From: Paraburkholderia sp. PGU19
GTDB lineage: Bacteria > Pseudomonadota > Gammaproteobacteria > Burkholderiales > Burkholderiaceae
Reading direction: 5' to 3'
NCBI RefSeq assembly: GCF_013426915.1
Contig: NZ_AP023180.1
Span: 496,001 to 560,000 of the forward strand
DNA: 64,000 nucleotides
In this document: positions 8,289 through 37,404 of the stretch, in pieces
Layout: each line of letters opens with the position of its first letter
Numbering within the stretch: the first letter of the stretch is position 1
The notes under the pieces: generated by a model
Told to the model about the DNA's origin: nothing
Seen by the model: the letters and a program-made list of their open reading frames with translations, nothing else
Databases searched by the model: none
Translations under genes and position numbers: made by a program

Positions 8289-8435
8289 GAGCGTAGCAAG
8301 CAGCATGCAATGCGGCAAGCCGACAAAAAACACCTTCAGATGGCGCAGCGCACCAATCGCGTCGACGCATGCTGGTTTTCCCTCATGGTCGCGCGCAAGC
8401 AAGAACGGGTCGCTGATAGTCGATTTTGCCGGAAT

Positions 8436-8447
8436 ATGGATTTGTAC
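8436..8447 (+). promoter_or_regulatory. Shared motif ATGGATTTGTAC upstream of caiX
   Basis: Second copy of the 12-mer found at 5944-5955, at almost the same distance from its start codon and with TTGCC just upstream. Confidence 0.4.
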
Positions 8448-8542
8448 CTTTAATGCACATCGCGTCTTTCCAGGGTCGTCTCACTCGCCGCCCGTCATGC
8501 GGGCGTTCTAGAACATTACGAGCTGTGTCGAAGGGGATCGTC

Positions 8543-9493: not shown

Positions 9494-9568
9494 GGTTCGA
9501 CATTCGAATACGGAAAGTACTGTTCCATTGCAACCAATCAGACACCACAGTTAACAGGAATTGCACGC

Positions 9569-18051: not shown

Positions 18052-18053
18052 CC

Positions 18054-19666: not shown

Positions 19667-19682
19667 GCGATCTTACGCGGAT

Positions 19683-19706
19683 CTGGGTCACCTTAAGGTG
19701 ACCCAG
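19683..19706 (+). promoter_or_regulatory. 24-bp perfect palindrome between wza and wzc
   Basis: Arms CTGGGTCACC and GGTGACCCAG flank TTAA. The palindrome is 17 bp after the wza stop and 102 bp before the preferred wzc start. As RNA it forms a 10-bp stem with a 4-nt loop; no T-run follows. It may trim or attenuate the message between export channel and kinase, or bind a protein. Confidence 0.5.
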
Positions 19707-19807
19707 TGCGCTCTATTGAGTTGCTAAGCGGACTGGCCTTGTTTCCCCATCCTGTCGCAATACACGTTGAAGAAGCCGTGAGTATTGAAGTGAAAAATAA
19801 TGGGATT

Positions 19808-22003: not shown

Positions 22004-22009
22004 CCCGAG

Positions 22010-22948
22010 ATGAGAATGATGAAAATAACGGTGCTGGTTCCGACTTATCGTCGGGAGGAGGACCTCGTGCGGTGTCTTCTGGCATTGAGAATGCAGGAGC
22101 GCGGATGCGATGAGGTTGTGGTGGTAGCGCGGTCGGATGACGAGACAACTTTGGCGTGTTTGAAGAATCCAGAAGTCGCAGAGGGGCTTCCGCTTAAAGT
22201 CGCATTGAGCCAGGTGTCCGGTCAGGTCGCAGCACTCAATTGCGGCTTGGATGCTGCCACTGGTGATGTGATTGCGATCACTGATGACGATGCGGCGCCA
22301 CGCCCGGATTGGGTGCGACGCATAGAAACCGCGTTTTGTGCGGATCCAAGGTTAGGTGGGCTTGGTGGACGCGACTGGATGCATCTTAAGGGCAGTGTGG
22401 TGTATGGCGAGCGTCCCATTGTCGGGAAGATAGCACTCTCCGGCAAAGTTACTGGTAATCATCATCTGGGTGCAGGCGAACCACGCGAAGTCGATGTGCT
22501 CAAAGGAGCCAACATGAGCTACCGTCGTGACGCGATTTGCAATATCCGTTTTGATACACGTTTGCGCGGCGCGGGCGCGCAGGTTCATAACGATATGGCA
22601 TTCAGCATGAGCGTGAAGCGCGCCGGCTGGAAACTGACCTACGATCCACAGGTAGCGGTTGATCACTTTCCTGCTGAACGATTTGATGAAGATCGTCGAG
22701 ACGCGCCGAGCTTGGTAGCTGTGTGCAATGCCGCATACAACTTGCATCTGACGCTGAGAGACCATTTGTCTCCGCTGCATCGCGGTATAGCGTGGTGGTG
22801 GTATGCGCTCATCGGCACGCGCGTCTATCCCGGTATGGCGCATGTACTGCTTGCATTGCTCTCTAGTCTCACTGTGTCACAAAATCTATTTGCAGTGAAG
22901 CGATACCTGGTAGTATTGAATAATACAGACTTCGGGCGATCGCGATGA
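22010..22948 (+). CDS. Family 2 glycosyltransferase, 3' end replaced by insertion sequence
   Basis: A 312-residue GT-A enzyme. ITVLVPTYRREEDLV opens the fold, the metal-binding DDD is at residues 92-94 (AITDDDAAPRPDW), and an acceptor-region motif with ED-like NDMAFS follows. It begins 7 bp after wzc. The native gene ran on: at 22863-22866 an IS701-like element is inserted, and the last 26 residues (from LTVSQ) come from the element. Removing the element and one CTAG copy joins codon-perfectly to 24372-24483, giving a 322-residue protein whose TGA overlaps the next ATG. The catalytic domain is intact, so activity may survive. It occupies the bceG position. Confidence 0.85.
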   Translation: MRMMKITVLVPTYRREEDLVRCLLALRMQERGCDEVVVVARSDDETTLACLKNPEVAEGLPLKVALSQVSGQVAALNCGLDAATGDVIAITDDDAAPRPDWVRRIETAFCADPRLGGLGGRDWMHLKGSVVYGERPIVGKIALSGKVTGNHHLGAGEPREVDVLKGANMSYRRDAICNIRFDTRLRGAGAQVHNDMAFSMSVKRAGWKLTYDPQVAVDHFPAERFDEDRRDAPSLVAVCNAAYNLHLTLRDHLSPLHRGIAWWWYALIGTRVYPGMAHVLLALLSSLTVSQNLFAVKRYLVVLNNTDFGRSR

Positions 22949-24367
22949 GAGAAGATGTCGACGAATTTGACGCGTATCTGAATCATCTGGCGCTGGCGTT
23001 AGGGCACGCCGATCGCCATGCCGGCCTCAAGGGTTACTGTTCGGGCTTGGTAATGCCGTTGTCACGCAAGAGCGTCGAGCCGATGGCCGCGCATATTGAC
23101 CCACTTCACGCGAGTGCGAAACACCAGTCACTTCACCATTTTGTGGCCAAGGCAGAATGGTCTGACCGGGCGGTCCTGCAGCGGGTACGCGAATGGGTGA
23201 TGCCCGCGTTAGGCCTGCACGCTGCTGAAGAGGCTGGCTATTACTGGATTATTGACGATACGGGCTTCCCGAAGAAGGGCAAGCATTCGGTCGGCGTAGC
23301 GCGACAATACTGTGGGCAACTGGGCAAACAGGATAACTGCCAGATCGCCGTGAGCCTGTCGATCGCGACGCAACGGGGCAGTTTGCCGATTGCCTGGCAA
23401 TTGTATATCCCCAAGGAATGGATTGACGACCGGGAACGTGCCCGTCGCGCTGGCATTCCCGACGAACTAGTTTTCCAGACCAAGCCACAGATTGCGCTGG
23501 CCCAGCTTCGCGAGGCCATAGCATCCGGCGTTGCGCCGGGCATCGTGCTGGCCGACGCTGGGTATGGCGACGAAACCGCATTCCGGGAGGGCATAACTGA
23601 ACTGGGTTTGTTGTACGCGGTAGGGATCCGGCCGGTCACCTCTGTGTGGGCGCCAGGTACGGAGCCGCTTCCACCCAAGCCCTGGAGCGGGCGCGGTCAG
23701 CCACCGAAGTTGTTGCGCCGTGCGCCCGGCCATAAACCGCTCGCGGTGAAGGAACTGGCCATGCAATTACCCGTGAACGCCTGGCAAACCGTAACCTGGC
23801 GGGAAGGTAGCAACGCAGCACTTTCCTCACGCTTTGCCGCCGTACGGGTTCGTCCCGCACATCACGACTATTGGCGAAGTACGGTTCGCGACGAAGAATG
23901 GCTGCTTATTGAATGGCCTGATGGCGATACGGAGCCGCTCAAATACTTTCTCGCTACTGCCCCCGAGGAGGCGACACTTGAGCAGCTTGTGTTCGTGACC
24001 AAGATGCGCTGGCGCATCGAGCGCGACTATCAGGACCTGAAACAGGAGTTCGGGCTCGGTCATTATGAAGGGCGAGGCTGGCGTGGCTTTCACCACCACG
24101 CCACATTGAGTATCGCTGCGTATGGGTTTCTGATGGCTCAGCGACTGCGAATGCAATCAGGTGGACGCGATAAAAAAAACTTCCTTGAACGGGCGCTGCC
24201 TGCCCTTCCCTCGGATTACATCCCCCGGGGCAGTCCAGCGCGCTCAACGCCACGTTCCTGATTCCATTACCACGTTGCGCATCCTGCTTGGACTAAGGCT
24301 CATGCAACGATGGCTCGCTCCCTAGTACAGCAATCGAGCGCGCAATTATTTATATGACACAGTAGTA
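22867..24367 (+). mobile_element. IS701-family insertion sequence, copy 1 (1501 bp)
   Basis: A complete element with imperfect terminal inverted repeats that share ACTGTGTCA (left end TCTCACTGTGTCA, right end read inward TACTACTGTGTCA). The 4-bp target duplication CTAG is at 22863-22866 and 24368-24371, matching the short CTAG-like target preference known for the IS701 family. It carries one transposase gene on the + strand. A second copy of the same length lies at 26995-28495 in the opposite orientation. Its excision would restore the GT2 gene exactly. Confidence 0.95.
22945..24261 (+). CDS. IS701-family transposase, copy 1
   Basis: A 438-residue DDE transposase. The first acidic motif IIDDTGFPKKGKHSVG has Asp104/Asp105, the second is Asp204 in LADAGYGDE, and the glutamate lies in WRIERDYQDLKQEFG (residues 356-370), a typical IS4/IS701 Y-(2)-R-type signature region. 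It is full length without frameshifts, so the element is probably active. Its translated product is identical over all 438 residues to copy 2. The start ATG overlaps the end of the truncated GT2 frame by 4 bp. Confidence 0.95.
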   Translation: MREDVDEFDAYLNHLALALGHADRHAGLKGYCSGLVMPLSRKSVEPMAAHIDPLHASAKHQSLHHFVAKAEWSDRAVLQRVREWVMPALGLHAAEEAGYYWIIDDTGFPKKGKHSVGVARQYCGQLGKQDNCQIAVSLSIATQRGSLPIAWQLYIPKEWIDDRERARRAGIPDELVFQTKPQIALAQLREAIASGVAPGIVLADAGYGDETAFREGITELGLLYAVGIRPVTSVWAPGTEPLPPKPWSGRGQPPKLLRRAPGHKPLAVKELAMQLPVNAWQTVTWREGSNAALSSRFAAVRVRPAHHDYWRSTVRDEEWLLIEWPDGDTEPLKYFLATAPEEATLEQLVFVTKMRWRIERDYQDLKQEFGLGHYEGRGWRGFHHHATLSIAAYGFLMAQRLRMQSGGRDKKNFLERALPALPSDYIPRGSPARSTPRS

Positions 24368-24371
24368 CTAG

Positions 24372-24483
24372 CGAAAGGGAGGCGAAGGTGGCGCGTTGGC
24401 GGGCAGTACGTATCGGCGGACGTGAGGCACGCCGCGAGCAGTCACGGAGAAATGACGCCCCGACTACGAGTTTGCACGCATGA
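24372..24483 (+). pseudogene. Detached 3' end of the GT2 gene
   Basis: These 112 bases, read in frame with 22010-22866, encode the native C-terminus of the interrupted glycosyltransferase (about 36 Arg-rich residues ending TTSLHA). The TGA overlaps the ATG of the next glycosyltransferase gene by the usual ATGA arrangement. The total of 969 bases is divisible by three, which confirms the reconstruction. Confidence 0.88.
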
Positions 24484-25631
24484 CCACGAAGGTCCACGTA
24501 CATCTGTTTTACGGCGCTGATCCGCGCTTCTACCGCCCGGGCGAGAACATCGGTTGCCTGTATGGCTATCACCATGCCGAGTCCGACGAATTCCAGTTGA
24601 GCTATTCGCAGGACGCGAAGGAAAGCAAGCCGGTACGTCTCATGCGCCGCGCACTGAAGAAGGTGCTCGGCTTCGACCTGATCCACACGCTGCGCAACCG
24701 CGACGAGATGCTGCGCTCGGATGTCATCTGGACGCACACCGAGCAGGAATGGCTGTCGGCCGCGCTGATGCTGTTGATGAACGGCAAGCGCGACGAGCAA
24801 CCGCTATTGCTCGCGCAAAGCGTGTGGCTGATCGACAAGTGGCCGAACTATGGCGTTCTGCGCCGCTGGTTTTATCGCAAGCTGATTGGGCGTGCCGATC
24901 TTCTGACGACGCTTGCGCGCGATAACGCCGAGTTGTGCCGCGACTACTTCGGCCGCGATGCGACGCAGCTTTTCTACGGGCTGAACACGCGCGACTTTCC
25001 CGTGCAGCCGCCGAAGACATGGCAGCCGAATACGCCGCTGCGCATCGCGGCGATCGGCAACGATCGCGACCGCGACTGGGAAACGCTGATCAAGGCCGTC
25101 GGCAACGATCCGCGCTTCGCGGTGCGTCTCGCGACGCGGCGGCGCATTCCGCGCGCACTGCGTTCGCTGAACGTGCAGGTCGCGCCCGCTGCGGGCCTGA
25201 AGAAGCAGCGTGAACTGTACGACTGGGCCGACGTGGTCGTCGTGCCCCTGCGCCCTAACACGCACGCATCCGGAATCACCGTGATGCTGGAAGCAGCCGC
25301 CGTCGGCAAGCCGATGGTCGTGACGAACGTCGGCGGGCTGCAGGATTACTTTTCGGCGAGCGCGGCGGCGTATGTGCCGCCGTTCAACGCGGACGCGCTG
25401 CGCGAGGCGTTGCTCGGCCTCATCGCATCACCGGGCGAAGCGCTGCAACAGGCGCAGGCGGCGTCGATGGAACTCGTGTCGCGCGATCACACGACGCAGC
25501 ACTATGCGCAGCAGCACGTGAGGCTCACGCGCGACCTGCTGCGCCGGCAAGCGCAACACGCGCATCCCGCGCAGAAGGCGAACGCGGGTGCAAACGCCCG
25601 CGTGCCGTCGCAGAGCCGGGGAGGGATGTAA
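24480..25631 (+). CDS. Family 4/1 glycosyltransferase
   Basis: A 383-residue GT-B glycosyltransferase. The N-terminal domain starts VHVHLFYGADPRFYRPGENIG. The C-terminal nucleotide-sugar domain has LRIAAIGNDRDRDWETLI and the E-rich donor-site region ASGITVMLEAAAVGKPMVVTNVGGLQDYF. The tail from about residue 355 is a basic, Ala/Gln-rich extension. It originally overlapped the GT2 gene by 4 bp and is followed 3 bp later by wzy. GC content is high again compared with wza-wzc. It is the bceH-position gene; donor and acceptor are unknown. Confidence 0.88.
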   Translation: MTTKVHVHLFYGADPRFYRPGENIGCLYGYHHAESDEFQLSYSQDAKESKPVRLMRRALKKVLGFDLIHTLRNRDEMLRSDVIWTHTEQEWLSAALMLLMNGKRDEQPLLLAQSVWLIDKWPNYGVLRRWFYRKLIGRADLLTTLARDNAELCRDYFGRDATQLFYGLNTRDFPVQPPKTWQPNTPLRIAAIGNDRDRDWETLIKAVGNDPRFAVRLATRRRIPRALRSLNVQVAPAAGLKKQRELYDWADVVVVPLRPNTHASGITVMLEAAAVGKPMVVTNVGGLQDYFSASAAAYVPPFNADALREALLGLIASPGEALQQAQAASMELVSRDHTTQHYAQQHVRLTRDLLRRQAQHAHPAQKANAGANARVPSQSRGGM

Positions 25632-25634
25632 GCG

Positions 25635-27062
25635 ATGTCGTCGATTGCACGAGCCGGGATCGACAGCGCTGTACGCGCCGTCAAGAGCGACAAGAGCCAT
25701 AAGAGCGTCTGGCTGCCGCCCGCGTTGCTGTGGCTCGTCACGGCGATGCTGATCGTCGCGCATCAGGGGACGGTGCTCACGCTCGCATTCCCGGTGCTGT
25801 CGATCGCCGTCGGTTTCTGGCTGTACTTCAAGGCGCCCGCGAAGTACGTCGGCTACATGTGGTGGCTGTGGTTCCTGAGTCCGGAAGTGCGGCGTCTCGC
25901 CGACTGGTTGAATGGCGTGTATACATCGAATAGTCTGGTCCAGATCGCCCCGCTCGCGGTCAGCATGATCAGCGGTCTATCGTTGATACGTTTTTTCTCG
26001 GTTCTTGCGCAACGACGAGGTCTGCCTGTTTTGCTAATGCTAACGGGAATAGCCTATGCATTTCTTGTCGGGGTCGTCTCCAATGGACTGATGGCTGCCT
26101 TATACGATCTCGCGAACTGGGTCTATCCGATACTGATCGGTTTTCACATCATGACGCACTGGCGTCTATACCGCGAGTGCAGAGCCGAGATCGTCAGCGC
26201 ATTCATTTGGGGCATGTTGGTGACGGGTGCTTACGGCGCAGTGCAATTTTTTATCATGCCGCCTTGGGATGTCCTTTGGATGACGAACGCACAGATGAAC
26301 TCTCAGGGCGACTCCGTACCGTTCGGTGTGCGTGTATTCAGCACGATGAACTCGTCTGGTCCGTTTGCATTTGTCATGTTGGGAGCAATGGTCTATGTAG
26401 CGGCCGCGGATCAACGCATACGCTGGATTGCGAGTGCATTTGGTTTTCTTTCTTTTAGTCTGAGTCTTGTTCGCTCTGCGTGGGGCGGTTGGATGATCGC
26501 GCTGCTTATTCAGGTCGCTAAATCGAGTGGCAAGGTGAGGTTGCACGTCGTAGCGAGTGGTACGGGTTTGGTCATCCTTGCGATACCTGTGCTTATGGTC
26601 GGCCCGATCGCCGAGCGGATGCAAACCAGATTGCAAACCATGGTCCACTTGGGCGATGACCAGAGTTACGTGGTTCGTAACCAATTCTACGCAAAGTTTG
26701 CAAGTATCGCGTTCACGAATATTGCTGGCGAGGGTATGGGGGCGACAGGCACATCGACGAAGCTGTCTAGCGTAGACGCGCGTCTTGGTCAATACGGGAA
26801 TTTCGACAGCGGCGTGATGAACATCCCATTCGTGCTCGGATGGCCCGGAACGTTGCTTTATGTGTCTGGAATGATCTGGGTTTTGATGCGTGCGTTACTC
26901 ATTTCCCCTCAGGTGCGAGGCGACAGTTTTGCGACTGCGAATTTTTCGATATCTTTTGCAACACTATCGATGCTCATGTTTACCAACTCGCTAGTACTAC
27001 TGTGTCATATAAATAATTGCGCGCTCGATTGCTGTACTAGGGAGCGAGCCATCGTTGCATGA
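25635..27062 (+). CDS. wzy: Exopolysaccharide polymerase (Wzy-like), C-terminus replaced by insertion sequence
   Basis: A polytopic membrane protein of the O-antigen ligase/polymerase type, with about ten hydrophobic segments and a large periplasmic loop (PFGVRVFSTMNSSGPFAF). The frame continues into an IS701-like element at 26995, so the last 23 residues or so (from LVLLCHINN) are element-encoded. Removing the element joins 26994 to 28500 in frame and gives 483 residues. The native end includes a hydrophobic stretch, GGLLFFGSMFAILSAV, that looks like a last membrane helix and is lost here. Base composition drops inside the gene near 25950, suggesting recombination. It occupies the bceI position. 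Confidence 0.8.
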   Translation: MSSIARAGIDSAVRAVKSDKSHKSVWLPPALLWLVTAMLIVAHQGTVLTLAFPVLSIAVGFWLYFKAPAKYVGYMWWLWFLSPEVRRLADWLNGVYTSNSLVQIAPLAVSMISGLSLIRFFSVLAQRRGLPVLLMLTGIAYAFLVGVVSNGLMAALYDLANWVYPILIGFHIMTHWRLYRECRAEIVSAFIWGMLVTGAYGAVQFFIMPPWDVLWMTNAQMNSQGDSVPFGVRVFSTMNSSGPFAFVMLGAMVYVAAADQRIRWIASAFGFLSFSLSLVRSAWGGWMIALLIQVAKSSGKVRLHVVASGTGLVILAIPVLMVGPIAERMQTRLQTMVHLGDDQSYVVRNQFYAKFASIAFTNIAGEGMGATGTSTKLSSVDARLGQYGNFDSGVMNIPFVLGWPGTLLYVSGMIWVLMRALLISPQVRGDSFATANFSISFATLSMLMFTNSLVLLCHINNCALDCCTRERAIVA

Positions 27063-28495
27063 GCCTTAGTCCAAGCAGGATGCGCAACGTGGTAATGGAA
27101 TCAGGAACGTGGCGTTGAGCGCGCTGGACTGCCCCGGGGGATGTAATCCGAGGGAAGGGCAGGCAGCGCCCGTTCAAGGAAGTTTTTTTTATCGCGTCCA
27201 CCTGATTGCATTCGCAGTCGCTGAGCCATCAGAAACCCATACGCAGCGATACTCAATGTGGCGTGGTGGTGAAAGCCACGCCAGCCTCGCCCTTCATAAT
27301 GACCGAGCCCGAACTCCTGTTTCAGGTCCTGATAGTCGCGCTCGATGCGCCAGCGCATCTTGGTCACGAACACAAGCTGCTCAAGTGTCGCCTCCTCGGG
27401 GGCAGTAGCGAGAAAGTATTTGAGCGGCTCCGTATCGCCATCAGGCCATTCAATAAGCAGCCATTCTTCGTCGCGAACCGTACTTCGCCAATAGTCGTGA
27501 TGTGCGGGACGAACCCGTACGGCGGCAAAGCGTGAGGAAAGTGCTGCGTTGCTACCTTCCCGCCAGGTTACGGTTTGCCAGGCGTTCACGGGTAATTGCA
27601 TGGCCAGTTCCTTCACCGCGAGCGGTTTATGGCCGGGCGCACGGCGCAACAACTTCGGTGGCTGACCGCGCCCGCTCCAGGGCTTGGGTGGAAGCGGCTC
27701 CGTACCTGGCGCCCACACAGAGGTGACCGGCCGGATCCCTACCGCGTACAACAAACCCAGTTCAGTTATGCCCTCCCGGAATGCGGTTTCGTCGCCATAC
27801 CCAGCGTCGGCCAGCACGATGCCCGGCGCAACGCCGGATGCTATGGCCTCGCGAAGCTGGGCCAGCGCAATCTGTGGCTTGGTCTGGAAAACTAGTTCGT
27901 CGGGAATGCCAGCGCGACGGGCACGTTCCCGGTCGTCAATCCATTCCTTGGGGATATACAATTGCCAGGCAATCGGCAAACTGCCCCGTTGCGTCGCGAT
28001 CGACAGGCTCACGGCGATCTGGCAGTTATCCTGTTTGCCCAGTTGCCCACAGTATTGTCGCGCTACGCCGACCGAATGCTTGCCCTTCTTCGGGAAGCCC
28101 GTATCGTCAATAATCCAGTAATAGCCAGCCTCTTCAGCAGCGTGCAGGCCTAACGCGGGCATCACCCATTCGCGTACCCGCTGCAGGACCGCCCGGTCAG
28201 ACCATTCTGCCTTGGCCACAAAATGGTGAAGTGACTGGTGTTTCGCACTCGCGTGAAGTGGGTCAATATGCGCGGCCATCGGCTCGACGCTCTTGCGTGA
28301 CAACGGCATTACCAAGCCCGAACAGTAACCCTTGAGGCCGGCATGGCGATCGGCGTGCCCTAACGCCAGCGCCAGATGATTCAGATACGCGTCAAATTCG
28401 TCGACATCTTCTCTCATCGCGATCGCCCGAAGTCTGTATTATTCAATACTACCAGGTATCGCTTCACTGCAAATAGATTTTGTGACACAGTGAGA
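26995..28495 (-). mobile_element. IS701-family insertion sequence, copy 2 (1501 bp, inverted)
   Basis: Same element as 22867-24367 in reverse orientation, same length, with end sequences matching base for base where compared. CTAG target duplications are at 26991-26994 and 28496-28499. It interrupts the polymerase gene 31 codons before its native stop. The two copies flank 24368-26994 as inverted repeats and could mediate inversion of that segment. Confidence 0.95.
27101..28417 (-). CDS. IS701-family transposase, copy 2
   Basis: A 438-residue DDE transposase, residue-for-residue identical to the copy at 22945-24261, with all acidic motifs intact. It is transcribed opposite to the surrounding exopolysaccharide genes. 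Identity between copies points to recent transposition or gene conversion. Confidence 0.95.
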   Translation of the reverse strand: MREDVDEFDAYLNHLALALGHADRHAGLKGYCSGLVMPLSRKSVEPMAAHIDPLHASAKHQSLHHFVAKAEWSDRAVLQRVREWVMPALGLHAAEEAGYYWIIDDTGFPKKGKHSVGVARQYCGQLGKQDNCQIAVSLSIATQRGSLPIAWQLYIPKEWIDDRERARRAGIPDELVFQTKPQIALAQLREAIASGVAPGIVLADAGYGDETAFREGITELGLLYAVGIRPVTSVWAPGTEPLPPKPWSGRGQPPKLLRRAPGHKPLAVKELAMQLPVNAWQTVTWREGSNAALSSRFAAVRVRPAHHDYWRSTVRDEEWLLIEWPDGDTEPLKYFLATAPEEATLEQLVFVTKMRWRIERDYQDLKQEFGLGHYEGRGWRGFHHHATLSIAAYGFLMAQRLRMQSGGRDKKNFLERALPALPSDYIPRGSPARSTPRS

Positions 28496-28499
28496 CTAG

Positions 28500-28591
28500 T
28501 GAGCACCGGCGGTCTGCTATTTTTTGGAAGCATGTTTGCCATTCTCTCTGCGGTACGGTGGAAACGAAGTTGCGATTGTCCAACTCCATGA
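28500..28591 (+). pseudogene. Detached 3' end of the wzy gene
   Basis: Read in frame with 25635-26994, these 92 bases encode the native polymerase C-terminus: a hydrophobic helix (LLFFGSMFAILSAV) followed by a short basic tail and a TGA. The combined length of 1452 bases is divisible by three. Confidence 0.85.
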
Positions 28592-28763
28592 TCGACTTTT
28601 TGCACCGCGCCGAGCAAATTATTTATTTCGCCAACCAGACACCGTATTGCTAATTTAGTGCGCTCAGCCTGAGGTAGCTGTGTGTAGATATGAATTGATC
28701 AAAGAAAACTATGGATAATTGGTTATCCTATATATAAATATTAACATTTAATTAAAAACAAAC
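28592..28763. promoter_or_regulatory. AT-rich intergenic segment before the next glycosyltransferase gene
   Basis: The last 80 or so bases are strongly AT-rich (TATATATAAATATTAAC and similar) in an otherwise GC-rich region. This could be a promoter or nucleoid-protein binding tract serving the genes downstream of the IS-disrupted wzy. I cannot assign a definite -35/-10 pair. Confidence 0.45.
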
Positions 28764-29930
28764 ATGCGCTCGATTTCGTTCTCATGTATCAAGTCGCTGC
28801 AAATCGGCATGCACTGGTTTCCCGAGCGCGCGGGCGGTCTCGACCGTATGTATTACTCGCTGATCGGCGCACTGCCCGGCGCACGCGTCGAAGTGCGCGG
28901 CGTCGTCGCGGGCTCCGGGCGCGTCGCGCAGGACACAAACGGCGCGATCCAGGGCTTCGGTTCCGCGGCGCAATCGCTGCCGCTTCGCCTGATGGCCGCA
29001 CGCCGCGCGCTGCGCCGCGAAATTCGCGAGCAGCGTCCCGACGTGATCTCGTCGCACTTCGCGCTGTACACGTTTCCCGGCCTCGACGCGATGCGCGGCA
29101 TCCCGCAGGTGTCGCATTTTCACGGGCCGTGGGCTGATGAGAGTCACGTCGAAGGCGCGGACTCGCTCGGTCAGCGTGCCAAGCGATATCTGGAGCAGAC
29201 CGTGTACGCGCGTTCATCGAGGCTGATCGTGCTGTCCGATGCGTTCGGCCGCATTCTGACGTCGCGCTACGGCATTCCCGCCGACCGCGTGCGCGTCGTG
29301 CCGGGCTGCGTGAACGTCGACCAGTTCAATCTGCCGCTTACGCAAAACGAAGCGCGGCTGCGTCTGCAACTGCCGCTGGGCCGGCCGATCGTGCTGGCCG
29401 TGCGGCGTCTCGTGCGGCGCATGGGTCTCGAAGATCTGATCGACGCCGTGAAGATGGTCAAGCGCCGCAATCCGGACGTGCTGCTACTGATCGCAGGGAA
29501 AGGGCGCTTGCAACAGGAGTTGCAGCAACGCATCGACGATGCCGGTCTCGGCGACAACGTGAAGCTGCTCGGCTTCGTGCCGGACGAGCACCTGGCCGCG
29601 CTCTATCGCGCGGCCACGATCAGCGTGGTGCCGACCGTGGCGCTCGAAGGGTTCGGGCTGATCACCGTGGAATCGCTGGCGTCGGGAACGCCCGTGCTGG
29701 TGACGCCCGTGGGTGGTCTTCCGGAAGCGGTGGCGGGGCTGTCGCAGGATCTCGTGCTGCCTTCGACGGGCGCGGATGCGATCGCCGATGGTCTGGGTAA
29801 GGCGCTGGATGGAACGATCAGGCTGCCGGACTCGGATGCGTGCCGGACGTACGCGCGGGCCAATTTCGATAATCCCGTGATCGCGAAGCGGGTCGCCGCT
29901 GTTTATTACGAAGCTCTCGCAGACGCCTGA
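28764..29930 (+). CDS. Family 4 glycosyltransferase
   Basis: A 388-residue GT-B enzyme. The N-terminal glycine-rich loop lies in QIGMHWFPERAGGLDRMYY. The C-terminal donor domain has IVLAVRRLVRRMGLEDLI, LLIAGKGRLQQEL, and the E-x7-E motif in ALEGFGLITVESLASGTPV. It probably adds one sugar to the lipid-linked repeat unit on the cytosolic face. It is the first gene after the second insertion sequence and is preceded by an AT-rich segment, so it may have its own promoter. It occupies the bceJ position by order. Confidence 0.9.
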   Translation: MRSISFSCIKSLQIGMHWFPERAGGLDRMYYSLIGALPGARVEVRGVVAGSGRVAQDTNGAIQGFGSAAQSLPLRLMAARRALRREIREQRPDVISSHFALYTFPGLDAMRGIPQVSHFHGPWADESHVEGADSLGQRAKRYLEQTVYARSSRLIVLSDAFGRILTSRYGIPADRVRVVPGCVNVDQFNLPLTQNEARLRLQLPLGRPIVLAVRRLVRRMGLEDLIDAVKMVKRRNPDVLLLIAGKGRLQQELQQRIDDAGLGDNVKLLGFVPDEHLAALYRAATISVVPTVALEGFGLITVESLASGTPVLVTPVGGLPEAVAGLSQDLVLPSTGADAIADGLGKALDGTIRLPDSDACRTYARANFDNPVIAKRVAAVYYEALADA

Positions 29931-30043
29931 CCGATATGAATCCTTCCACTCCAGAGTAGACGCACGCGCCATCTATTGGTGATCGCCTCGCGACACCGTG
30001 CATGGCCCATTGACTGCCGCATCAGGCGCATACACGGACGCTC

Positions 30044-31129
30044 ATGACAGCCAGCACCCTGCCCGCCACGCCTTCTCATCACCGACGCATCGTCCAGCTC
30101 GACGGCCTGCGCGCGATCGCCGTGCTCGCGGTGTTCGCGCAGCACGCGCTGAAGGCGCCGCTGTGGATGGGTGTCGACCTGTTCTTCGTGCTGAGCGGCT
30201 TTCTGATCACGGGCATTCTGCTGGACCGCAAGGCGCGCCAGCAGTCGTATTTCAGCTATTTCTATGCACGCCGCGCGCGCCGCATCCTGCCGCCGTATCT
30301 GCTGCTGATGGTGGTGTCGTCGCTGCTGTTCGGCTTCGGCTGGGCGCAGCACTGGGAGTGGTACGCGTTCTTCGCGACGAATATCGGCGATGCGCTCAAC
30401 CAGAGCGGCCATGACAGCCTGAACGTGCTGTGGTCGCTCGCCGTCGAAGAGCAGTTCTATATTGTCTGGCCGTTCGTGATCCTGCTCGTGCCCGAACGCG
30501 CGCTCGGCTATGTCGCGGCCGCGCTGATCGTGCTCGTTCCCGTGCTGCGCGCCGTCGCGACGCCCTGGTTCGATTCGTTCTGGCCGATCTATTACCTGAC
30601 GCCGTTCCGCATGGATCTGCTCGCAGCGGGCGCGCTGCTCGCCGTCGCCGTGCGGCGCGATGCGAACGCGCTCGCGCCGTTCAGGCTGCTGGCCGTGCTC
30701 GGCGTGTGCGTCGCGCTCGCCGTGCTTGCGTGGCTGCATCTGCACTATCCGCGTTTTCGCGCGGCCAATACGCCGCTTTCGAATGCCGGGCTGTATAGCG
30801 TGTCGCTGTTGCTGTGCACGTCGGTTGTCGTGATCGCGCTGCAGAGCAAGGGCATCGTCAAGCGGGTGTTGTGCAATCCCGTGCTCGTCTATATCGGCAC
30901 GATCAGCTACACGATCTACCTGATCCACCTGAGCGTTCTCTACGCGCTCTGGCCGCTGCATTACAACCGCTACGTGACGGCCGCGCTCGCGCTCGCGATC
31001 ACGCTGGTTTATGCAAGCGCATCGTGGTTCGGCTTCGAGCGCCGCCTGATTCATGGCAGCGCGACGCGTGGCCAACGGGCCGACGCCGCGTTGCATGCGA
31101 CACGCGAAGCATCGAGGACGAGCGCTTGA
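30044..31129 (+). CDS. Acyltransferase 3 family membrane protein
   Basis: A 361-residue inner-membrane acyltransferase with about ten helices. The family opening IVQLDGLRAIAVLAVFAQHA contains the catalytic-region His, followed by MGVDLFFVLSGFLITGIL and RRARRILPPYLLL. Such enzymes O-acetylate or otherwise acylate exopolysaccharide units. Its stop overlaps the TTG start of the next gene by 4 bp. In cepacian loci the acyltransferase bceO sits in a comparable place, next to an unnamed gene and the flippase. Confidence 0.9.
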   Translation: MTASTLPATPSHHRRIVQLDGLRAIAVLAVFAQHALKAPLWMGVDLFFVLSGFLITGILLDRKARQQSYFSYFYARRARRILPPYLLLMVVSSLLFGFGWAQHWEWYAFFATNIGDALNQSGHDSLNVLWSLAVEEQFYIVWPFVILLVPERALGYVAAALIVLVPVLRAVATPWFDSFWPIYYLTPFRMDLLAAGALLAVAVRRDANALAPFRLLAVLGVCVALAVLAWLHLHYPRFRAANTPLSNAGLYSVSLLLCTSVVVIALQSKGIVKRVLCNPVLVYIGTISYTIYLIHLSVLYALWPLHYNRYVTAALALAITLVYASASWFGFERRLIHGSATRGQRADAALHATREASRTSA

Positions 31130-33315
31130 AACCGTTGCAGAAGGTCGTGACATGCGCGCTACTTTCCAACGCAGCTTTCGTGCATGCGTTCGCCGAACCC
31201 GCGCTGAACGTGCAGACGTCATGGATCGGCAATACCTTCGGCTACGGCGACGGCGCGTGGACGCAGATCAACATCACGGCGCTCGCCGTGTCGCCCGACG
31301 GCAAGGTCTATACGAACGCACCATGGGACGAGAGCGGCGCGGAAGCGAGCGTCTATCAGAACGGCAAGATGCTCGGCTTCGCGGGCGGCACGCACGGCTG
31401 GGGTAACAGCGGCGGCAACGCGATCGCGATCAACAAACGCTATGCGTACGTGGCTGTCGGCGTCGGCAACGAGAAGGGACATCTCGTCGGGCAGGGCGTG
31501 TGGCCGGACAAGGGTCGCCAGTGGTACGGCATCTCGCGGCGTGAGATCGGCGATACGAAGCGCGTCGCCGCGTTCCAGGCCGCTGTGAGCAGCATCGATC
31601 CGCATGCGAAGGCGGCCGCCGCGTTCGCGATGGTCAACGACGTGCCCACGGGTACGCGCGGCGACATCAACGGGCTCGCTGCGAGCGACACGACGCTCTA
31701 CGCGTCGAACACGTCGCAGAACCGCATCGAGGTGTACGACGCCGAATCGATGCAGCGCAAGGCGCAATGGAGCGTGCCGGCACCGGGCCGCATCGCGCGC
31801 GCGGGCGACGACACGCTGTGGGTGCTGACCGACACGCTCGGCGACAAGCCGAAAGTCGCGCACCTGGATGCAAACGGCCAGCGTCTGAAAGACGAACTGC
31901 CGCTGCCCGCCGACACGGTCGCCGTCGATATCGCCGTCGATCCTCAGGGCCGCGTGCTGATCGCCGATAACGGCCCGCGCCAGCAGGTGCTGTTCTTAAG
32001 CAAGCGCGACGGCGGCTATGCGCTGACCTCGACGCTCGGCGAGCGCGGCGGCATCTTCTCGGGCGTCGCGGGCAAGCCGGGACCACAGCGCTTCAACGGA
32101 CTCACGGGCGTAGGCGTGGATGCGCGCGGCAACATCTACGTCTCGACCAATGGCATCGGTCCGCGCTTCGAGCCGACGGGAGCGGGCCTCGGCGCGACGC
32201 TCGAAAGCTATGCGCCCGACGGCAGGCGCGTGTGGCAGGTGGAAGGGCTGCTGTTCGTCGATGGCGCGTGGATGGACCCGTCGCGGCCCGACAGCGTCTA
32301 TACGGGCAACAAGCGCTTCACGCTCGATCTGTCGAAGCCGGCGGGCCAGCAATGGACCTACGCGGGCTTCCTGACGAACCGCTTCAGGTATCCCGACGAT
32401 CCCGTCTTCAACACCGACCAGTGGCCGGGCCTGCCCATCGCCCGCAAGCTGAAAGGCCGCACGTTCCTGTTCCTCACGGACATGTACGCGGACCATCTGA
32501 AGATCTATCGCTTCGACGGCGGCCGCGACGGCGAGACGGCGACGCCATCGGGCTTTATCGCGGGCCGCGAGCGCGCCGTGCTGAAGGTGCCGAACGCGCC
32601 GAAGGGCGGCGACTGGATCTGGCGCGACAGCAATGGCAACGGCCGCTTCGACGCCGACGAGTTCACGCCGAACACGACGGGCACGCACCTCGCGGGCGGC
32701 TGGGGCTGGTGGGTCGACACCAACGGCGACATCTGGCGCGCGCGCGATTCGAAGGGCATCAACCGCTTCCGGTTCGGCGGTCTCGATGCGAAGGGCAACC
32801 CCGTCTACTCGTACGCGGACATGACTTCATACCCCGTGCCGCAACCGTTCAGCGAAATCAAACGGGCGATCTACGACCCGCAGACCGATTCGATGTATGT
32901 GACGGGCTACACGGCCGAAGCGCCTTTCGACCGTGGCTTCTGGAAGGAAGTGGGCCGCGTGATGGTGCGCTACGACAAGTGGTCGAGCGGCAACCCCGTC
33001 GCGCGCTACACGCTGCCGCTGCCGTGGGACACGAAAGCAAAACCCGTCTCGACGCTGATCGGCCTCACCGTCGAAGGCAGATACGTGTTCGCCGTCGAGC
33101 CCGTTGGCACCATGCACGTCTACGACAAGGACACGGGCACGCCCGTCGGCACGATGCAACCGGGGCCCGAGGTGGGCCACGCATCGGGCTGGGTCGACGT
33201 GCCCAACGGCATCAGCGCATATCGCCGCGACGATGGCGAGTACCTCGTGTTCGTCGAGGAAGACGCGCGCGGCAAGGTGGTGATGTACCGCTGGAAACCG
33301 GCATCGAAAACATAA
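31126..33315 (+). CDS. Secreted NHL/beta-propeller protein with an EF-hand loop
   Basis: A 729-residue protein read from a TTG start that overlaps the acyltransferase stop (TTGA), with GAGGA about 7 nt upstream. A signal peptide (KPLQKVVTCALLSNAAFVHAFA) predicts export. Repeats of the type VSPDGKVYTN, VDPQGRVLIADNG and VDARGNIYVSTNG are NHL-like propeller blades. Residues 501-512 (DSNGNGRFDADE) form a canonical calcium-binding EF-hand loop with D1, N3, N5, G6, F8, D9 and E12; a partial loop (DTNGD) follows. Its place between acyltransferase and flippase suggests a periplasmic or extracellular role with the polysaccharide, possibly binding or modifying it. No catalytic motif is recognised. Confidence 0.8.
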   Translation: MKPLQKVVTCALLSNAAFVHAFAEPALNVQTSWIGNTFGYGDGAWTQINITALAVSPDGKVYTNAPWDESGAEASVYQNGKMLGFAGGTHGWGNSGGNAIAINKRYAYVAVGVGNEKGHLVGQGVWPDKGRQWYGISRREIGDTKRVAAFQAAVSSIDPHAKAAAAFAMVNDVPTGTRGDINGLAASDTTLYASNTSQNRIEVYDAESMQRKAQWSVPAPGRIARAGDDTLWVLTDTLGDKPKVAHLDANGQRLKDELPLPADTVAVDIAVDPQGRVLIADNGPRQQVLFLSKRDGGYALTSTLGERGGIFSGVAGKPGPQRFNGLTGVGVDARGNIYVSTNGIGPRFEPTGAGLGATLESYAPDGRRVWQVEGLLFVDGAWMDPSRPDSVYTGNKRFTLDLSKPAGQQWTYAGFLTNRFRYPDDPVFNTDQWPGLPIARKLKGRTFLFLTDMYADHLKIYRFDGGRDGETATPSGFIAGRERAVLKVPNAPKGGDWIWRDSNGNGRFDADEFTPNTTGTHLAGGWGWWVDTNGDIWRARDSKGINRFRFGGLDAKGNPVYSYADMTSYPVPQPFSEIKRAIYDPQTDSMYVTGYTAEAPFDRGFWKEVGRVMVRYDKWSSGNPVARYTLPLPWDTKAKPVSTLIGLTVEGRYVFAVEPVGTMHVYDKDTGTPVGTMQPGPEVGHASGWVDVPNGISAYRRDDGEYLVFVEEDARGKVVMYRWKPASKT

Positions 33316-33374
33316 GCACGACGCCTCTCCACCCACACGCTACCCAAACCTATGACTGACCAGAAAGGCATCCG

Positions 33375-34853
33375 ATGGATAAAGGCATCCTCAGAAACGT
33401 AGTGATCAACCTGATCGGGCTGGTGTTGCCGACGTTTGTATCGCTCGTCACGGTGCCGTCGTACATCAAGCTGCTGGGCGTCGAACGCTACGGCGTGATC
33501 AGCCTCGTCTGGACGCTGATCGGCTACTTCAGCATTCTCGATCTCGGCATGAGCATGGCTGCGCAGAACCACATCTCGAAGGCGCGTGCATCGAACGACG
33601 AGCAGGCGTGCGAGCAGGTGTTCTGGAGCGCGACGTGGTTGAACCTGGCGACGGGCATCGTCGGCGGGCTCGTCATCTACTTCGGCGCGGCGCTCTATAC
33701 CGCGTATTTCTCGAAGGTGTCGCCCGAACTGCAGCACGAGGTCTATATGGCGCTGCCGTGGCTCGCGGTGGCGATTCCGCTCGCGAACGTGTCGTGGGTG
33801 TTCGCGGGCGCGATCAACGGCGCGGAACGCTTCGGCATCTACAACACGAACCAGACGCTCGGCACGTTCCTGTTCCAGCTGCTGCCGCTCGCCGCCGCAT
33901 GGATGATGGGGCCGACGCTGCAGAACGTGCTGGCGGCGGCTGTGGTCGCGCGCATCATCTTGGCTATTCTGCTTGGACGCTCAGCGTTGATCGTGCTCGG
34001 CATCGGGCGCGCTCAATTACCGCAATTGACCATTGCAAAGGAACTTTTCAATCTCGGCGGCTGGATGCTGATTGCGAGCATCTCGGGGATGGTCTCCGAA
34101 TCGCTGGACCGCGTGATGCTCGGCACGAGTCTAGGCGCGCGTTTCGTTACGTACTACACCGTGCCGCAGAACGTTGTCACACGATTGAACATTTTGCCGA
34201 ATGCAATGGCGCGCACGCTGTTTCCGCGCCTGTCGGCAGTGGGCCGGGACGACGCCGACGTCATCATGCGGCAGTCGCTCGAATTCCTGAACGGTGTGTT
34301 CACGCCCATTGCGCTCGTTGCGATCATCGTGCTGGAACCGTTCCTGCATGCGTGGGTGGGCAACGAAGTCGCCGATGCGGGCGGTCCCGTGGGCCGCATC
34401 CTGATCATCTCCGTGTGGCTCGTCGGTCAGGCGAACCTCGCGCGCATTCTCATCCAGTCGCAGGTGCATCCTGCGACAGCCGCGCGCCTCGGCCTGTTCG
34501 AGCTGCCTTTCTTCGCGGGCGCACTGTGGTTCGGCATTGCGCATTTCGGCCTGACGGGCGCGGCGGTCGTCGTGGCCGCGCGCGGCCTGTTCGACTACGT
34601 GGCGCTGCTGAAACTGTCGGCCATTCACGCGCGTCCGATCGTGCTCGACATGCTCGCGCATCTCGCTTTTCTGGTGGGCACGTTGTGGCTCGCCACCTTG
34701 CTCTCCAGCCTGCCGATGGCCATTGCCGCGGGCGCGCTCATCGTGAGCGCGAACGTCGCGTGGTCGCTCACGATGACCCCTGCATTGCGCGATCTTGCGC
34801 GTTCGCTGCTTGTGCGTCTGAAGTTGCGACTCAATCCGAGGAATAGCGCATGA
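33375..34853 (+). CDS. wzx: Polysaccharide repeat-unit flippase (Wzx-like)
   Basis: A 492-residue MATE/MOP-superfamily membrane protein with twelve to fourteen hydrophobic segments. The opening ILRNVVINLIGLVLPTFVSL and the YIKLLGVERYGVISLVWT segment are typical of oligosaccharide flippases. It should translocate the undecaprenyl-linked repeat unit to the periplasm for Wzy. Its stop overlaps the next ATG by 4 bp (ATGA), so it is cotranscribed with the following glycosyltransferase. It occupies the bceQ position. Confidence 0.92.
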   Translation: MDKGILRNVVINLIGLVLPTFVSLVTVPSYIKLLGVERYGVISLVWTLIGYFSILDLGMSMAAQNHISKARASNDEQACEQVFWSATWLNLATGIVGGLVIYFGAALYTAYFSKVSPELQHEVYMALPWLAVAIPLANVSWVFAGAINGAERFGIYNTNQTLGTFLFQLLPLAAAWMMGPTLQNVLAAAVVARIILAILLGRSALIVLGIGRAQLPQLTIAKELFNLGGWMLIASISGMVSESLDRVMLGTSLGARFVTYYTVPQNVVTRLNILPNAMARTLFPRLSAVGRDDADVIMRQSLEFLNGVFTPIALVAIIVLEPFLHAWVGNEVADAGGPVGRILIISVWLVGQANLARILIQSQVHPATAARLGLFELPFFAGALWFGIAHFGLTGAAVVVAARGLFDYVALLKLSAIHARPIVLDMLAHLAFLVGTLWLATLLSSLPMAIAAGALIVSANVAWSLTMTPALRDLARSLLVRLKLRLNPRNSA

Positions 34854-36112
34854 ACCACGATATCGTTGAAGAAGACCTGCTGCGTCCCACGCCCGTGACG
34901 CGCGATGCGGGCCGCGATCTCATCACGACCACGCCCGTTGGCAGGCCGCCCGCAAAACGGCGCGGCGCGCGCAGCGTCGGGCCCGTGCGGGTTGCCATCA
35001 TTCACGACTGGCTCGTCACCTATGCGGGCGCCGAGCGTGTGCTCGAACAGATCGTCGCGTGTTTTCCGGAGGCGGACATCTTCAGTCTCGTCGACTTCCT
35101 CGACGACCGCACGTTCCTGCGCGGCAAGTCCGTGACGACCTCCTTCATCCAGAAGCTGCCGAAGGCGCGCACGAAATACCGCAGCTATCTGCCGCTGATG
35201 CCGCTCGCGATTGAACAGCTCGACGTGTCCGCGTACGACGTCGTGATCTCGAGCAGTCATGCCGTCGCGAAGGGCGTGCTGACGGGGCCGGACCAGGTGC
35301 ATATCAGCTACGTGCATTCGCCTATCCGCTACGCGTGGGATCTCCAGCATCAGTATCTGCAGCAGTCGAAGCTGACGAGCGGCCCCAAGTCCGCGCTGGC
35401 GCGGATGATCCTGCATTACATGCGCAACTGGGATATCCGCACGTCGAATTCCGTCGATGCGTTCGTCGCGAACTCCGAGTTCATCTCGCGACGCATCCAC
35501 AAGGTTTATCAGCGCGATTCCGAAGTGATCTTTCCGCCCGTCGACGTCGAGTCGTTCTCGCTATGCGAAGAGAAGGACGACTTCTATCTGACGGCCTCGC
35601 GCATGGTGCCGTACAAGAAGATCGACCTGATCGTCGAGGCATTCGCGCGGATGCCGGAGCGCAGGCTGGTCGTGATCGGCGACGGCCCCGACATGCAGAA
35701 GGTGCGCGCGAAGGCGACACCGAACGTGCAGATCATGGGTTATCAGCCGTTCAACGTGTTGCGCGATCACATGCGCCGCGCGAAGGCGTTCGTGTTCGCA
35801 GCGGAAGAGGACTTCGGCATTTCGGTGGTGGAAGCGCAGGCGTGCGGCACGCCCGTGATTGCGTACGGCAAGGGCGGGGCGCTCGAAACCGTGCGCGACC
35901 AGTACGAGTCGCATCCGACGGGGATTTTCTTCAACGAGCAGACGGCCGATTCGATCATCGGCGCGATCGAGGATTTCGCCGACGATCCCGCGCGAATGCC
36001 GAGCGTTTTTCGATCCGGCATTTCCGCGAGCGCTTCTTCGGCTTCGTGCGCGAAACGGTGCCTGCGCTGCAGGGGGCGACGCTGCCTGTGGATGAACCGC
36101 CCGCGAAGGTGA
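34850..36112 (+). CDS. Family 4 glycosyltransferase, 3' end out of frame (apparent frameshift near 35995)
   Basis: The frame codes for 420 residues. After a disordered 40-residue N-terminus comes a GT-B fold: VRVAIIHDWLVTYAGAERVLE, then FYLTASRMVPYKKIDLIVEAF and the donor motif EEDFGISVVEAQACGTPVIAY. From about residue 384 the protein becomes Cys/Arg/Trp-rich and unnatural. The missing family C-terminus (ERFSIRHFRERFFGFV) is present in the +1 position of another frame, which then runs without a stop into the next glycosyltransferase. Adding one A to the AA at 35995-35996 would give one 851-residue two-domain protein. The stop of the shifted frame overlaps a GTG by 4 bp, so separate genes remain possible. 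Confidence 0.75.
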   Translation: MNHDIVEEDLLRPTPVTRDAGRDLITTTPVGRPPAKRRGARSVGPVRVAIIHDWLVTYAGAERVLEQIVACFPEADIFSLVDFLDDRTFLRGKSVTTSFIQKLPKARTKYRSYLPLMPLAIEQLDVSAYDVVISSSHAVAKGVLTGPDQVHISYVHSPIRYAWDLQHQYLQQSKLTSGPKSALARMILHYMRNWDIRTSNSVDAFVANSEFISRRIHKVYQRDSEVIFPPVDVESFSLCEEKDDFYLTASRMVPYKKIDLIVEAFARMPERRLVVIGDGPDMQKVRAKATPNVQIMGYQPFNVLRDHMRRAKAFVFAAEEDFGISVVEAQACGTPVIAYGKGGALETVRDQYESHPTGIFFNEQTADSIIGAIEDFADDPARMPSVFRSGISASASSASCAKRCLRCRGRRCLWMNRPRR

Positions 36113-37404
36113 GCGAACCGAAACCGGCATCGGGCGCGTTGCGCGTGCTTGCGATCGATCAGAGCGGCGTGATGGGTGGCGCCGAACTGTCGCTGCTGGA
36201 AGTCGTGAAGGCGCTCAAGGCGCGTGTGCAGGTGGTGCTGTTCGACGACGGACCGTTTCGTATGGCGCTGCATCGCGAAGGCGTGGCCGTCGATGTACTC
36301 GATCCCGGCGCGACGCGCGACATCCGCAAGCAGGGCGGCACGCCGCCCATCGCGAAGGCGGTGAAGGGCGTGGCATCACTGGTTCGCGCGACGGTCGCGC
36401 GAGCCCGGCAGAGCGACGTGATCTATGCGAACACGCAGCGGGCGATGGTGATTGGCGCGATTGCGGGACGCTTTGCGCGGCGCCCTGTGGTCTGGCATCT
36501 GCGCGATATCGTTAGCCCCGAGCATTTCGGCAGCAAGCAGCTTGCGATCATCAAATGGTGCGCGAAACTGGGTCTGGCGCATGTGATCGCCAATTCGGCG
36601 GCTTCGGCGCGTGCGTTTGCCGAGCTGACCAGTTTTGGCGACAAGCGCATCGATGTGGTGTTCAACGGCATTTCCTCTGCACCGTTCAGTGCGTTGCGGG
36701 ATACGCCGCAAAGCGTGCTGCGTGCGCGGCTGAAGCTGCCGCAGGATGCGTTTCTTGTCGGCTCGTTCAGTCGTCTTGCGCAGTGGAAGGGGCAGCATGT
36801 GTTGCTTGAGGCAATGGTGCTCAATCCGCAGATGCATGCGGTTCTGGTGGGCGCGCCGCTGTTTGGCGAAGATGCTTACGAGGCGCGGTTACGTGAGTTT
36901 GTTGCATCGAATGGGCTTGAAGGACGGGTGCATTTTCTTGGGTTTCAGGATGATGTGGCTGCGTGCATGTGTGCCGTCGATGTGGTTGCGCATACGTCGA
37001 TTACGCCAGAGCCGTTTGGCCGTGTGATCGTTGAAGGGATGCTGGCGCGGCGGCCAGTCGTGGCGGCACGTGCCGGTGGTGTGGTTGAGATCATCGACGA
37101 TGGTGTGAATGGGGTGATGTGTACGCCAGGCGATGCGCATGCGCTGGCCGATACGCTTGCTGAGTTGAGGTCGGATCAGGCGCTGCGCGACCGGCTTGTT
37201 GCGCGTGGGTATCAGACCGCGGTGCGGAAGTTTGGGACCCAGGCGTATGTCGAAGGCGTGGAGAGGATTCTTGCGAATGTGGCGGCTAAACGCTCAATGC
37301 TCGCTGACGACCAATGCACACAACAACGATCCGATAGGGCGTCATGCAAATGTTGTCGCTCAATAGATCATGATCTAACACGATACCTCGACAAAAATAC
37401 TTGA
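36109..37404 (+). CDS. Family 4 glycosyltransferase, possibly the second domain of a fused protein
   Basis: Read from a GTG at 36109 that overlaps the previous stop, this is 431 residues. The N-terminal domain begins LRVLAIDQSGVMGGAELSLLEV. The donor domain has AFLVGSFSRLAQWKGQHVL and the motif PEPFGRVIVEGMLARRPVVA. The same frame is open back to 35335, and its upstream part encodes the natural C-terminus of the preceding glycosyltransferase, so the two may form one gene. The last 40 or so residues (from KRSMLADD) are Cys/Arg-rich and of low-GC sequence, suggesting a recombination junction at the 3' end. It is in the bceR position after wzx. Confidence 0.75.
   Translation: MSEPKPASGALRVLAIDQSGVMGGAELSLLEVVKALKARVQVVLFDDGPFRMALHREGVAVDVLDPGATRDIRKQGGTPPIAKAVKGVASLVRATVARARQSDVIYANTQRAMVIGAIAGRFARRPVVWHLRDIVSPEHFGSKQLAIIKWCAKLGLAHVIANSAASARAFAELTSFGDKRIDVVFNGISSAPFSALRDTPQSVLRARLKLPQDAFLVGSFSRLAQWKGQHVLLEAMVLNPQMHAVLVGAPLFGEDAYEARLREFVASNGLEGRVHFLGFQDDVAACMCAVDVVAHTSITPEPFGRVIVEGMLARRPVVAARAGGVVEIIDDGVNGVMCTPGDAHALADTLAELRSDQALRDRLVARGYQTAVRKFGTQAYVEGVERILANVAAKRSMLADDQCTQQRSDRASCKCCRSIDHDLTRYLDKNT
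37364..37377. promoter_or_regulatory. 14-bp perfect palindrome upstream of manC
   Basis: TAGATCATGATCTA, centred about 87 bp before the manC start, lies within the doubtful 3' tail of the preceding glycosyltransferase gene in AT-richer sequence. It is a candidate operator for a separately controlled manC. Confidence 0.35.

What the first reader, a model, noticed from the sequence alone, without database searches (positions are those of the whole stretch)
22863..28499. Two apparently identical IS701-like elements in inverted orientation within one exopolysaccharide locus
Both elements are 1501 bp, carry identical 438-residue transposases and have their own CTAG duplications, so they reflect two separate insertions rather than a composite transposon. 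They frame a 2.6-kb segment (a glycosyltransferase gene and most of wzy) as inverted repeats that could flip by recombination. Because each outer and inner flank rejoins into an intact reading frame, the segment is in its ancestral orientation in this sequence. An inversion switch would reassort the 3' ends of two exopolysaccharide genes.
Basis: partly seen in the sequence, partly recalled or inferred. Interest (0 to 1): 0.7.

Follow-up and report, generated by a model that had tools for sequence, protein, structure and literature searches.

The report
Twin insertion sequences in polysaccharide locus
Two identical jumping-gene copies have landed, facing each other, in a spare second copy of a soil bacterium's slime-polymer gene cluster; they cut two of its genes short, and flipping the piece between them would not change the two shortened proteins.

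Summary
In detail: two identical 1501-bp IS701-family elements (22867-24367 +, 26995-28495 -), each between CTAG copies, enclose 2627 bp. They are two of seven near-identical full copies in an 11.2-Mb Paraburkholderia-type genome. With both left out, the locus is collinear with its second copy on contig C1; 87 of 89 comparison rows (83 of 85 distinct, C1 included) keep gene order, none with the IS. So these are two separate insertions and the segment is in ancestral orientation. The CTAG duplications alone could not show that: CTAG is palindromic and the element's target. The proposed consequence fails: inversion leaves both truncated proteins letter-for-letter unchanged; only the strand of two genes would change. 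The locus is a duplicate cepacian-type (bce) cluster with bceG and bceI (wzy) interrupted and bceJ absent. Most likely a redundant, mosaic, IS-damaged locus, not a switch.

The parts
22863..22866 (.). CTAG, left copy of target duplication of IS copy 1
22867..24367 (+). IS701-family element, copy 1 (1501 bp), inside the GT2 gene (bceG-like)
22945..24261 (+). IS701-family transposase, 438 aa
   Evidence: NF033540, 447.8 bits, cut-off 150
24368..24371 (.). CTAG, right copy of target duplication of IS copy 1
22010..22948 (+). GT2 glycosyltransferase (bceG-like), truncated: 285 host codons then 27 residues read from the IS
24372..24483 (+). separated 3' end of the GT2 gene
24480..25631 (+). glycosyltransferase (bceH-like), intact, 99.2% protein identity to the C1 copy
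24662..25908 (+). gene-conversion tract: 1 mismatch in 1247 bases against the C1 cluster; segment averages outside 58-70%
25635..27062 (+). wzy-type polymerase (bceI-like), truncated: 453 host codons then 22 residues read from the IS; chimeric 5' end
26991..26994 (.). CTAG, inner copy of target duplication of IS copy 2
26995..28495 (-). IS701-family element, copy 2 (1501 bp, identical to copy 1), inside wzy
27101..28417 (-). IS701-family transposase, 438 aa
28496..28499 (.). CTAG, outer copy of target duplication of IS copy 2
28500..28591 (+). separated 3' end of wzy
28592..28763 (.). place where relatives hold one more glycosyltransferase gene (bceJ position); absent here
28764..29930 (+). 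GT4 glycosyltransferase (bceK-like); 28788-29914 is 96.7% identical to C1, with a 362-base identical run 29307-29668
29977..37283 (+). further genes (O-, P-, Q-, R-like by order, and one more GT): 29977-31129 98.3% and 31181-37283 96.8% copies of the C1 cluster

Best explanation
A redundant second bce (cepacian-type) exopolysaccharide cluster has been hit twice by a recently active IS701-family element that targets CTAG. One copy interrupts bceG and the other, in opposite orientation, interrupts bceI (wzy). The segment between them keeps its ancestral orientation. Shown: identity of the copies, their targets, collinearity with the C1 paralogue and relatives, truncated products, absence of bceJ, and the conversion tract. 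Inferred: the damage is tolerated because the C1 cluster supplies the pathway; the two transposition events were recent; RecA-type recombination between the inverted copies can occur at low frequency but would only put bceH and truncated bceI on the other strand, lowering their expression, without restoring or exchanging any reading frame.
For: Six of seven full copies are identical over 1501 bp and the seventh lacks one base: a recent burst. Six of seven lie between CTAG/CTAG. With the elements left out, one alignment (query 4657-9543, 76.9%) runs through both sites to the C1 paralogue; the same single alignment over both sites was found in 7 of the 15 loci compared, the rest aligning in pieces or ending short of a site. 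87 of 89 rows keep GT2-GT1-Wzy order and strand and 0 of 89 hold the IS (the rows include the own C1 copy, and four re-fetch a contig already counted, so 83 of 85 distinct). The window's proteins from bceC on match, in order, the stretch of G107 at the bce coordinates that PMC7378592 gives for P. phymatum. In the inverted isomer both truncated products are unchanged. The C1 cluster holds uninterrupted ORFs for GT2, GT1, Wzy, the bceJ-position GT and GT4.
Against: Truncated BceG keeps its Pfam glycosyltransferase region (residues 6-226) and may still work, so 'damaged' is certain only as truncation. The downstream proteins (GT4 to the GT at 36109) are 96-99.5% identical to C1 without stops, so part of the locus looks maintained or newly copied. 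Redundancy is inferred; there are no expression or phenotype data.
Confidence: 0.85

Rival explanations
1. Invertible switch: recombination between the inverted IS copies flips bceH plus most of wzy and so regulates or diversifies the polymer.
For: 1501 bp of perfect identity in inverted orientation 2.6 kb apart is ample substrate for homologous recombination. RecA-dependent recombination between nearly identical IS elements is documented in Burkholderia thailandensis, there duplicating a 208.6-kb region (PMC12124856, abstract read). In this genome another copy (L002) with unequal flanks CTAA/CTAG sits where about 4 kb of sequence conserved in relatives is missing, so IS-associated rearrangement has probably occurred.
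Against: Inversion leaves both truncated proteins letter for letter the same, so nothing is reassorted. Both genes are interrupted in either state. None of the 89 rows has the IS. No inverted state is seen, though one assembly could not show it.
Confidence: 0.08
2. Phase variation by excision of the IS copies, as described for IS492 in Pseudoalteromonas atlantica, each excision returning one gene.
For: Both joined frames are uninterrupted. IS492 mobilisation is stated to control EPS phase variation in P. atlantica, and a cited title speaks of its precise excision (PMC2536512, passages read).
Against: IS492 belongs to another family (IS110; recalled, and papers on IS110 in the listing mention it). 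Two independent precise excisions would be needed and bceJ would still be missing.
Confidence: 0.03
3. One event: a composite transposon or an intramolecular replicative transposition created both copies.
For: Identical copies in inverted orientation flanking a segment; CTAG on all sides; the target sites share 8 of the 9 nearest bases.
Against: The segment is the ancestral middle of the operon in ancestral orientation. From recalled knowledge, intramolecular replicative transposition would have inverted it, and a composite transposon would have brought foreign DNA.
Confidence: 0.03
4. Assembly artefact: one copy misplaced or the segment oriented arbitrarily.
For: The seven copies are near-identical and longer than short reads.
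Against: G000 is in 5 contigs of 0.85 Mb or more; both sites rejoin into the frames that relatives have.
Confidence: 0.01

Closest known systems
IS701-family insertion sequences (NF033540)
   Same: Transposase, imperfect terminal inverted repeats, 4-bp target duplication of YTAR type (CTAG here; TTAG, CTAA, TTAA and CTAG among relatives).
   Different: Nothing notable; closest relative found in the genus is 95% identical (G107, at most two candidates scored per genome).
bce-I/bce-II cepacian gene cluster of Paraburkholderia phymatum (PMC7378592, passages read)
   Same: Gene order C-D-E-F-G-H-I-K, then the O-P-Q-R region, matched to the published coordinates.
   Different: Second copy in the genome; bceG and bceI interrupted; bceJ absent; the O-like gene on the other strand relative to P. 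phymatum; bceA- and bceB-like genes at the far end; mosaic of divergent and C1-type DNA.
IS492 in the EPS genes of Pseudoalteromonas atlantica (PMC2536512, passages read)
   Same: An IS inserted in exopolysaccharide genes.
   Different: Other IS family (recalled); one element that moves there; here two elements and no evidence for excision.
RecA recombination between IS copies in B. thailandensis E264 (PMC12124856, abstract read)
   Same: Nearly identical IS copies as recombination substrate in a related genus.
   Different: There the copies duplicate a 208.6-kb region with a shown phenotype; here inverted copies 2.6 kb apart, no phenotype shown.
Reversible excision of wzy in Salmonella Typhimurium (PMC12074656, abstract read)
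   Same: A wzy gene as the target of a repeat-flanked rearrangement.
   Different: Direct att repeats and excision there, not inverted IS copies.

Membership tests
IS701 family | IS701 transposase above curated cut-off | tested here: met
   NF033540 447.8 bits, cut-off 150
IS701 family | terminal inverted repeats | tested here: met
   ends TCTCACTGTGTCA and TACTACTGTGTCA
IS701 family | 4-bp target duplication, YTAR (consensus recalled) | tested here: met
   6 of 7 own copies CTAG/CTAG; 8 of 14 relatives with readable flanks have equal 4-bp flanks, 7 of them YTAR; 6 of 14 unequal
composite transposon | IS pair enclosing cargo foreign to the site | tested here: not met
   enclosed genes are the native middle of the operon
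invertible DNA switch | two states give different protein products | tested here: not met
   truncated GT2 and Wzy identical in both states
invertible DNA switch | two states differ in expression; both present in a population | not testable with these tools
   no read or expression data
bce (cepacian) cluster | ordered homologues of bceC-K and the O-R region | tested here: met
   in order except bceJ, which is absent; O-like gene on the other strand; gene letters assigned by order from PMC7378592; bceN, V, S, T not looked for
bce (cepacian) cluster | makes cepacian | not testable with these tools
   needs chemistry; bceJ absent, bceG and bceI truncated
gene conversion tract | sharp-edged near-identity between paralogues inside divergent flanks | tested here: met
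   957-base identical run; longest run in 1000 shuffles 46; right edge at 25908/25909, left edge graded between 24473 and 24662

The most novel reading that the evidence does not exclude
The C2 bce cluster is not dead but a cassette store in which DNA moves between two replicons: C1 repeatedly overwrites parts of it by conversion, while the IS pair makes bceH and the chimeric bceI a flippable block that is read or silenced depending on orientation, tuning bceH dosage in trans to the C1 pathway.
Probability: 0.06. Interest if true: 0.6.

Novelty: new member of a known kind. Interest (0 to 1): 0.25.

Why it matters
It shows how to judge such pairs: with an IS that targets a palindromic tetranucleotide, target duplications say nothing about orientation, and a within-genome paralogue does. 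It also shows why an inverted IS pair inside coding sequence does not reassort genes. The sharp conversion tract between two exopolysaccharide clusters on different contigs is a clean case of paralogue homogenisation making a chimeric polymerase gene. Otherwise ordinary decay of a redundant locus.

Tried and rejected
Target duplications as proof of separate insertion: rejected, CTAG is palindromic and the common target. Promoter/terminator scan of 21900-28900: numbers at shuffle level (2 promoter-like sites against 3.6; 6 terminator-like against 6.3), so no outward promoter or terminator is claimed. Clustering of insertions (three close pairs among seven copies; under uniform insertion P of any adjacent pair within 4128 bp is 0.015 and of at least three within 25221 bp 3e-5): could follow uneven CTAG density, which varies from 1 to 20 per 20 kb over 20 sampled stretches (164 sites in 400 kb); the part 16001-28570 without the IS copies has 8 sites in 9.56 kb. 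Recurrent conversion in other strains: paralogue pairs of C35, LEh10 and E7m39 show 100-base patches up to 95-99%, but I did not measure identical runs there. Viral contigs: 6 distant transposase relatives (44-64% identity), uninformative. Transposase against PDB sequences: no match at E 0.001. Literature: 0 papers hold IS701 with CTAG and target site duplication, or IS701 with YTAR. Listings showed no title or abstract start describing an IS pair flipping an EPS segment; from the searches I opened four papers: PMC12074656 and PMC12124856 (outline and abstract), PMC7378592 and PMC2536512 (passages).
Full report
1. Observation. The repeat finder reports one inverted pair of 30 nt or more in 18000-34000: arms 22857-24374 and 26988-28505. 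The two elements, 22867-24367 (+) and 26995-28495 (-), are identical base for base. Each codes for a 438-aa transposase that NCBIfam names IS701 family (NF033540, 447.8 bits, cut-off 150; Pfam DDE_5). CTAG flanks both ends of both. The ends are imperfect inverted repeats (TCTCACTGTGTCA / TACTACTGTGTCA).

2. The element in the genome. The window is G000:C2:496001-560000 of an 11.2-Mb genome in 5 contigs. It holds seven full copies: two here, two on C4, two on C5, one on C3. Six are identical and the seventh lacks one base. Six of seven lie between CTAG/CTAG; the copy L002 on C4 lies between CTAA and CTAG. Matches of any length at E up to 0.001 were found in 71 of 144 genomes of the genus, G000 counted among both (at most two candidates scored per genome, many matches partial); the best outside G000 is 95% in G107. 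Of 29 loci fetched there, 14 have both ends and both flanks readable: 8 have equal 4-bp flanks, 7 of those YTAR; the other 6 all abut a CTTCTATGG-like sequence on one side. CTAG occurs 164 times in 400 kb sampled, and in the window 31 times, IS copies included, against 77 (first-order) or 45 (second-order) expected.

3. Two insertions and orientation. With one IS and one CTAG left out at each place, a single alignment (76.9%) runs through both sites to a second copy of the cluster on contig C1 of the same genome; this holds for 7 of the 15 loci compared, the others aligning in pieces or ending short of a site. The systematic count used 89 rows: the 80 loci that one search kept of 124, plus nine fetched stretches, among them the own C1 copy. 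87 rows (83 distinct) have GT2, GT1 and Wzy in this order and strand. One (L071) lacks GT1 and one (L100) begins inside wzy. None holds the IS at E 1e-10. So the present orientation is ancestral and the insertions are separate. The CTAG duplications do not show this by themselves.

4. What an inversion would do. Both IS left ends point outward and both right ends inward, so each broken gene always borders the same IS end. In the inverted isomer the GT2 product (285 host + 27 IS-read residues) and the Wzy product (453 host + 22) are letter for letter those of the present state. Only the strand of bceH and truncated bceI changes.

5. Does this IS rearrange DNA here? The L002 copy suggests so. 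Its left flank, from the base next to the 4-bp flank on, is 93-94% identical to G001, G020, G069, G076 and G130. The site reads CTAA in G130 and CTAT in G001, G020 and G076. What follows in G001 (query 1-4238) has no match in G000 above 71% except three of 61 to 80 bases at 73-77%. None of these five genomes has a match to the right flank. Unequal flanks plus a missing stretch fit a deletion through the IS, by recombination between two copies or by transposition. Which of the two is not shown.

6. The locus. Proteins from UDP-glucose dehydrogenase (16588) to the glycosyltransferase at 36109 match, in order, G107:C1:1183179-1215931, the O-like gene on the other strand. PMC7378592 (passages read) gives those coordinates for bce-I and bce-II of P. 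phymatum; that G107 is this strain is my inference from equal coordinates, and the gene letters are assigned by order. The interrupted genes correspond to bceG and bceI (wzy). Between the Wzy and bceK-like matches, 85 of 86 rows with both have 1247-1453 bp (repeated contigs included), and in C1 a 409-aa GT4-type glycosyltransferase lies there, the bceJ position. The window has 172 bp between the two genes and no such gene; L071 (59 bp) lacks it too.

7. Mosaic structure. Against C1, segment averages are 61.8% (Wzc), 69.5 and 58.3% (bceG 5' and 3'), 70.4 and 63.9% (rest of wzy), but 24662-25908 has one mismatch in 1247 bases. The longest identical run, 957 bases, compares with at most 46 in 1000 shuffles of the aligned sites (5860 sites, 1586 mismatches). 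C1 is 91-98% identical to G001 in all these segments, whereas C2 is so only inside the tract (91.4%; 56-70% elsewhere), so the tract is C1-type DNA in C2. It covers most of bceH and about the first 91 codons of wzy, making a chimeric polymerase gene. Downstream, 28788-29914 (96.7%), 29977-31129 (98.3%, differently arranged) and 31181-37283 (96.8%) are also close copies of C1.

8. Verdict. A known kind of event (IS insertions) in a redundant, mosaic polysaccharide cluster. RecA recombination between IS copies is known in B. thailandensis (PMC12124856, abstract), and IS492 is said to control EPS in P. atlantica (PMC2536512, passages), so switching by IS is not absurd, but here it would not change the products.

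Noticed in passing
24662-25908 (also 29307-29668): Recent conversion tract from the C1 bce cluster (1 mismatch in 1247 bases) inside the IS-bounded segment; a second identical run of 362 bases in the bceK-like gene.
   Followed up: yes
28592-28763: The glycosyltransferase gene present at this place in 85 of 86 comparison rows by spacing (bceJ position) is absent.
   Followed up: partly
L159 7667-9167 (G000:C4:643666-645166): IS copy with unequal flanks CTAA/CTAG at a place where sequence conserved in relatives is missing: probably a deletion or rearrangement scar.
   Followed up: partly
L157 7382-11730 (G000:C5:62381-66729): Two direct IS701 copies flank a 1348-bp element with a 394-codon open frame, transposase-like and IS5-like by recall only, with CTAGCAGGTTGCTGAA ends.
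   Followed up: no
L046, L051, L054, L055, L057, L059: All 6 of the 14 readable IS701 relatives with unequal flanks abut a CTTCTATGG-like sequence on one side; unexplained.
   Followed up: no
22857-22866/24368-24374 and 26988-26994/28496-28505: The two target sites share TGCTCnCTAGCGA in the orientation of the IS; 0.5% of random sets of seven CTAG sites hold such a pair.
   Followed up: partly
49001-55460: Cellulose synthesis genes (BcsR-like, BcsB) further along the window.
   Followed up: no
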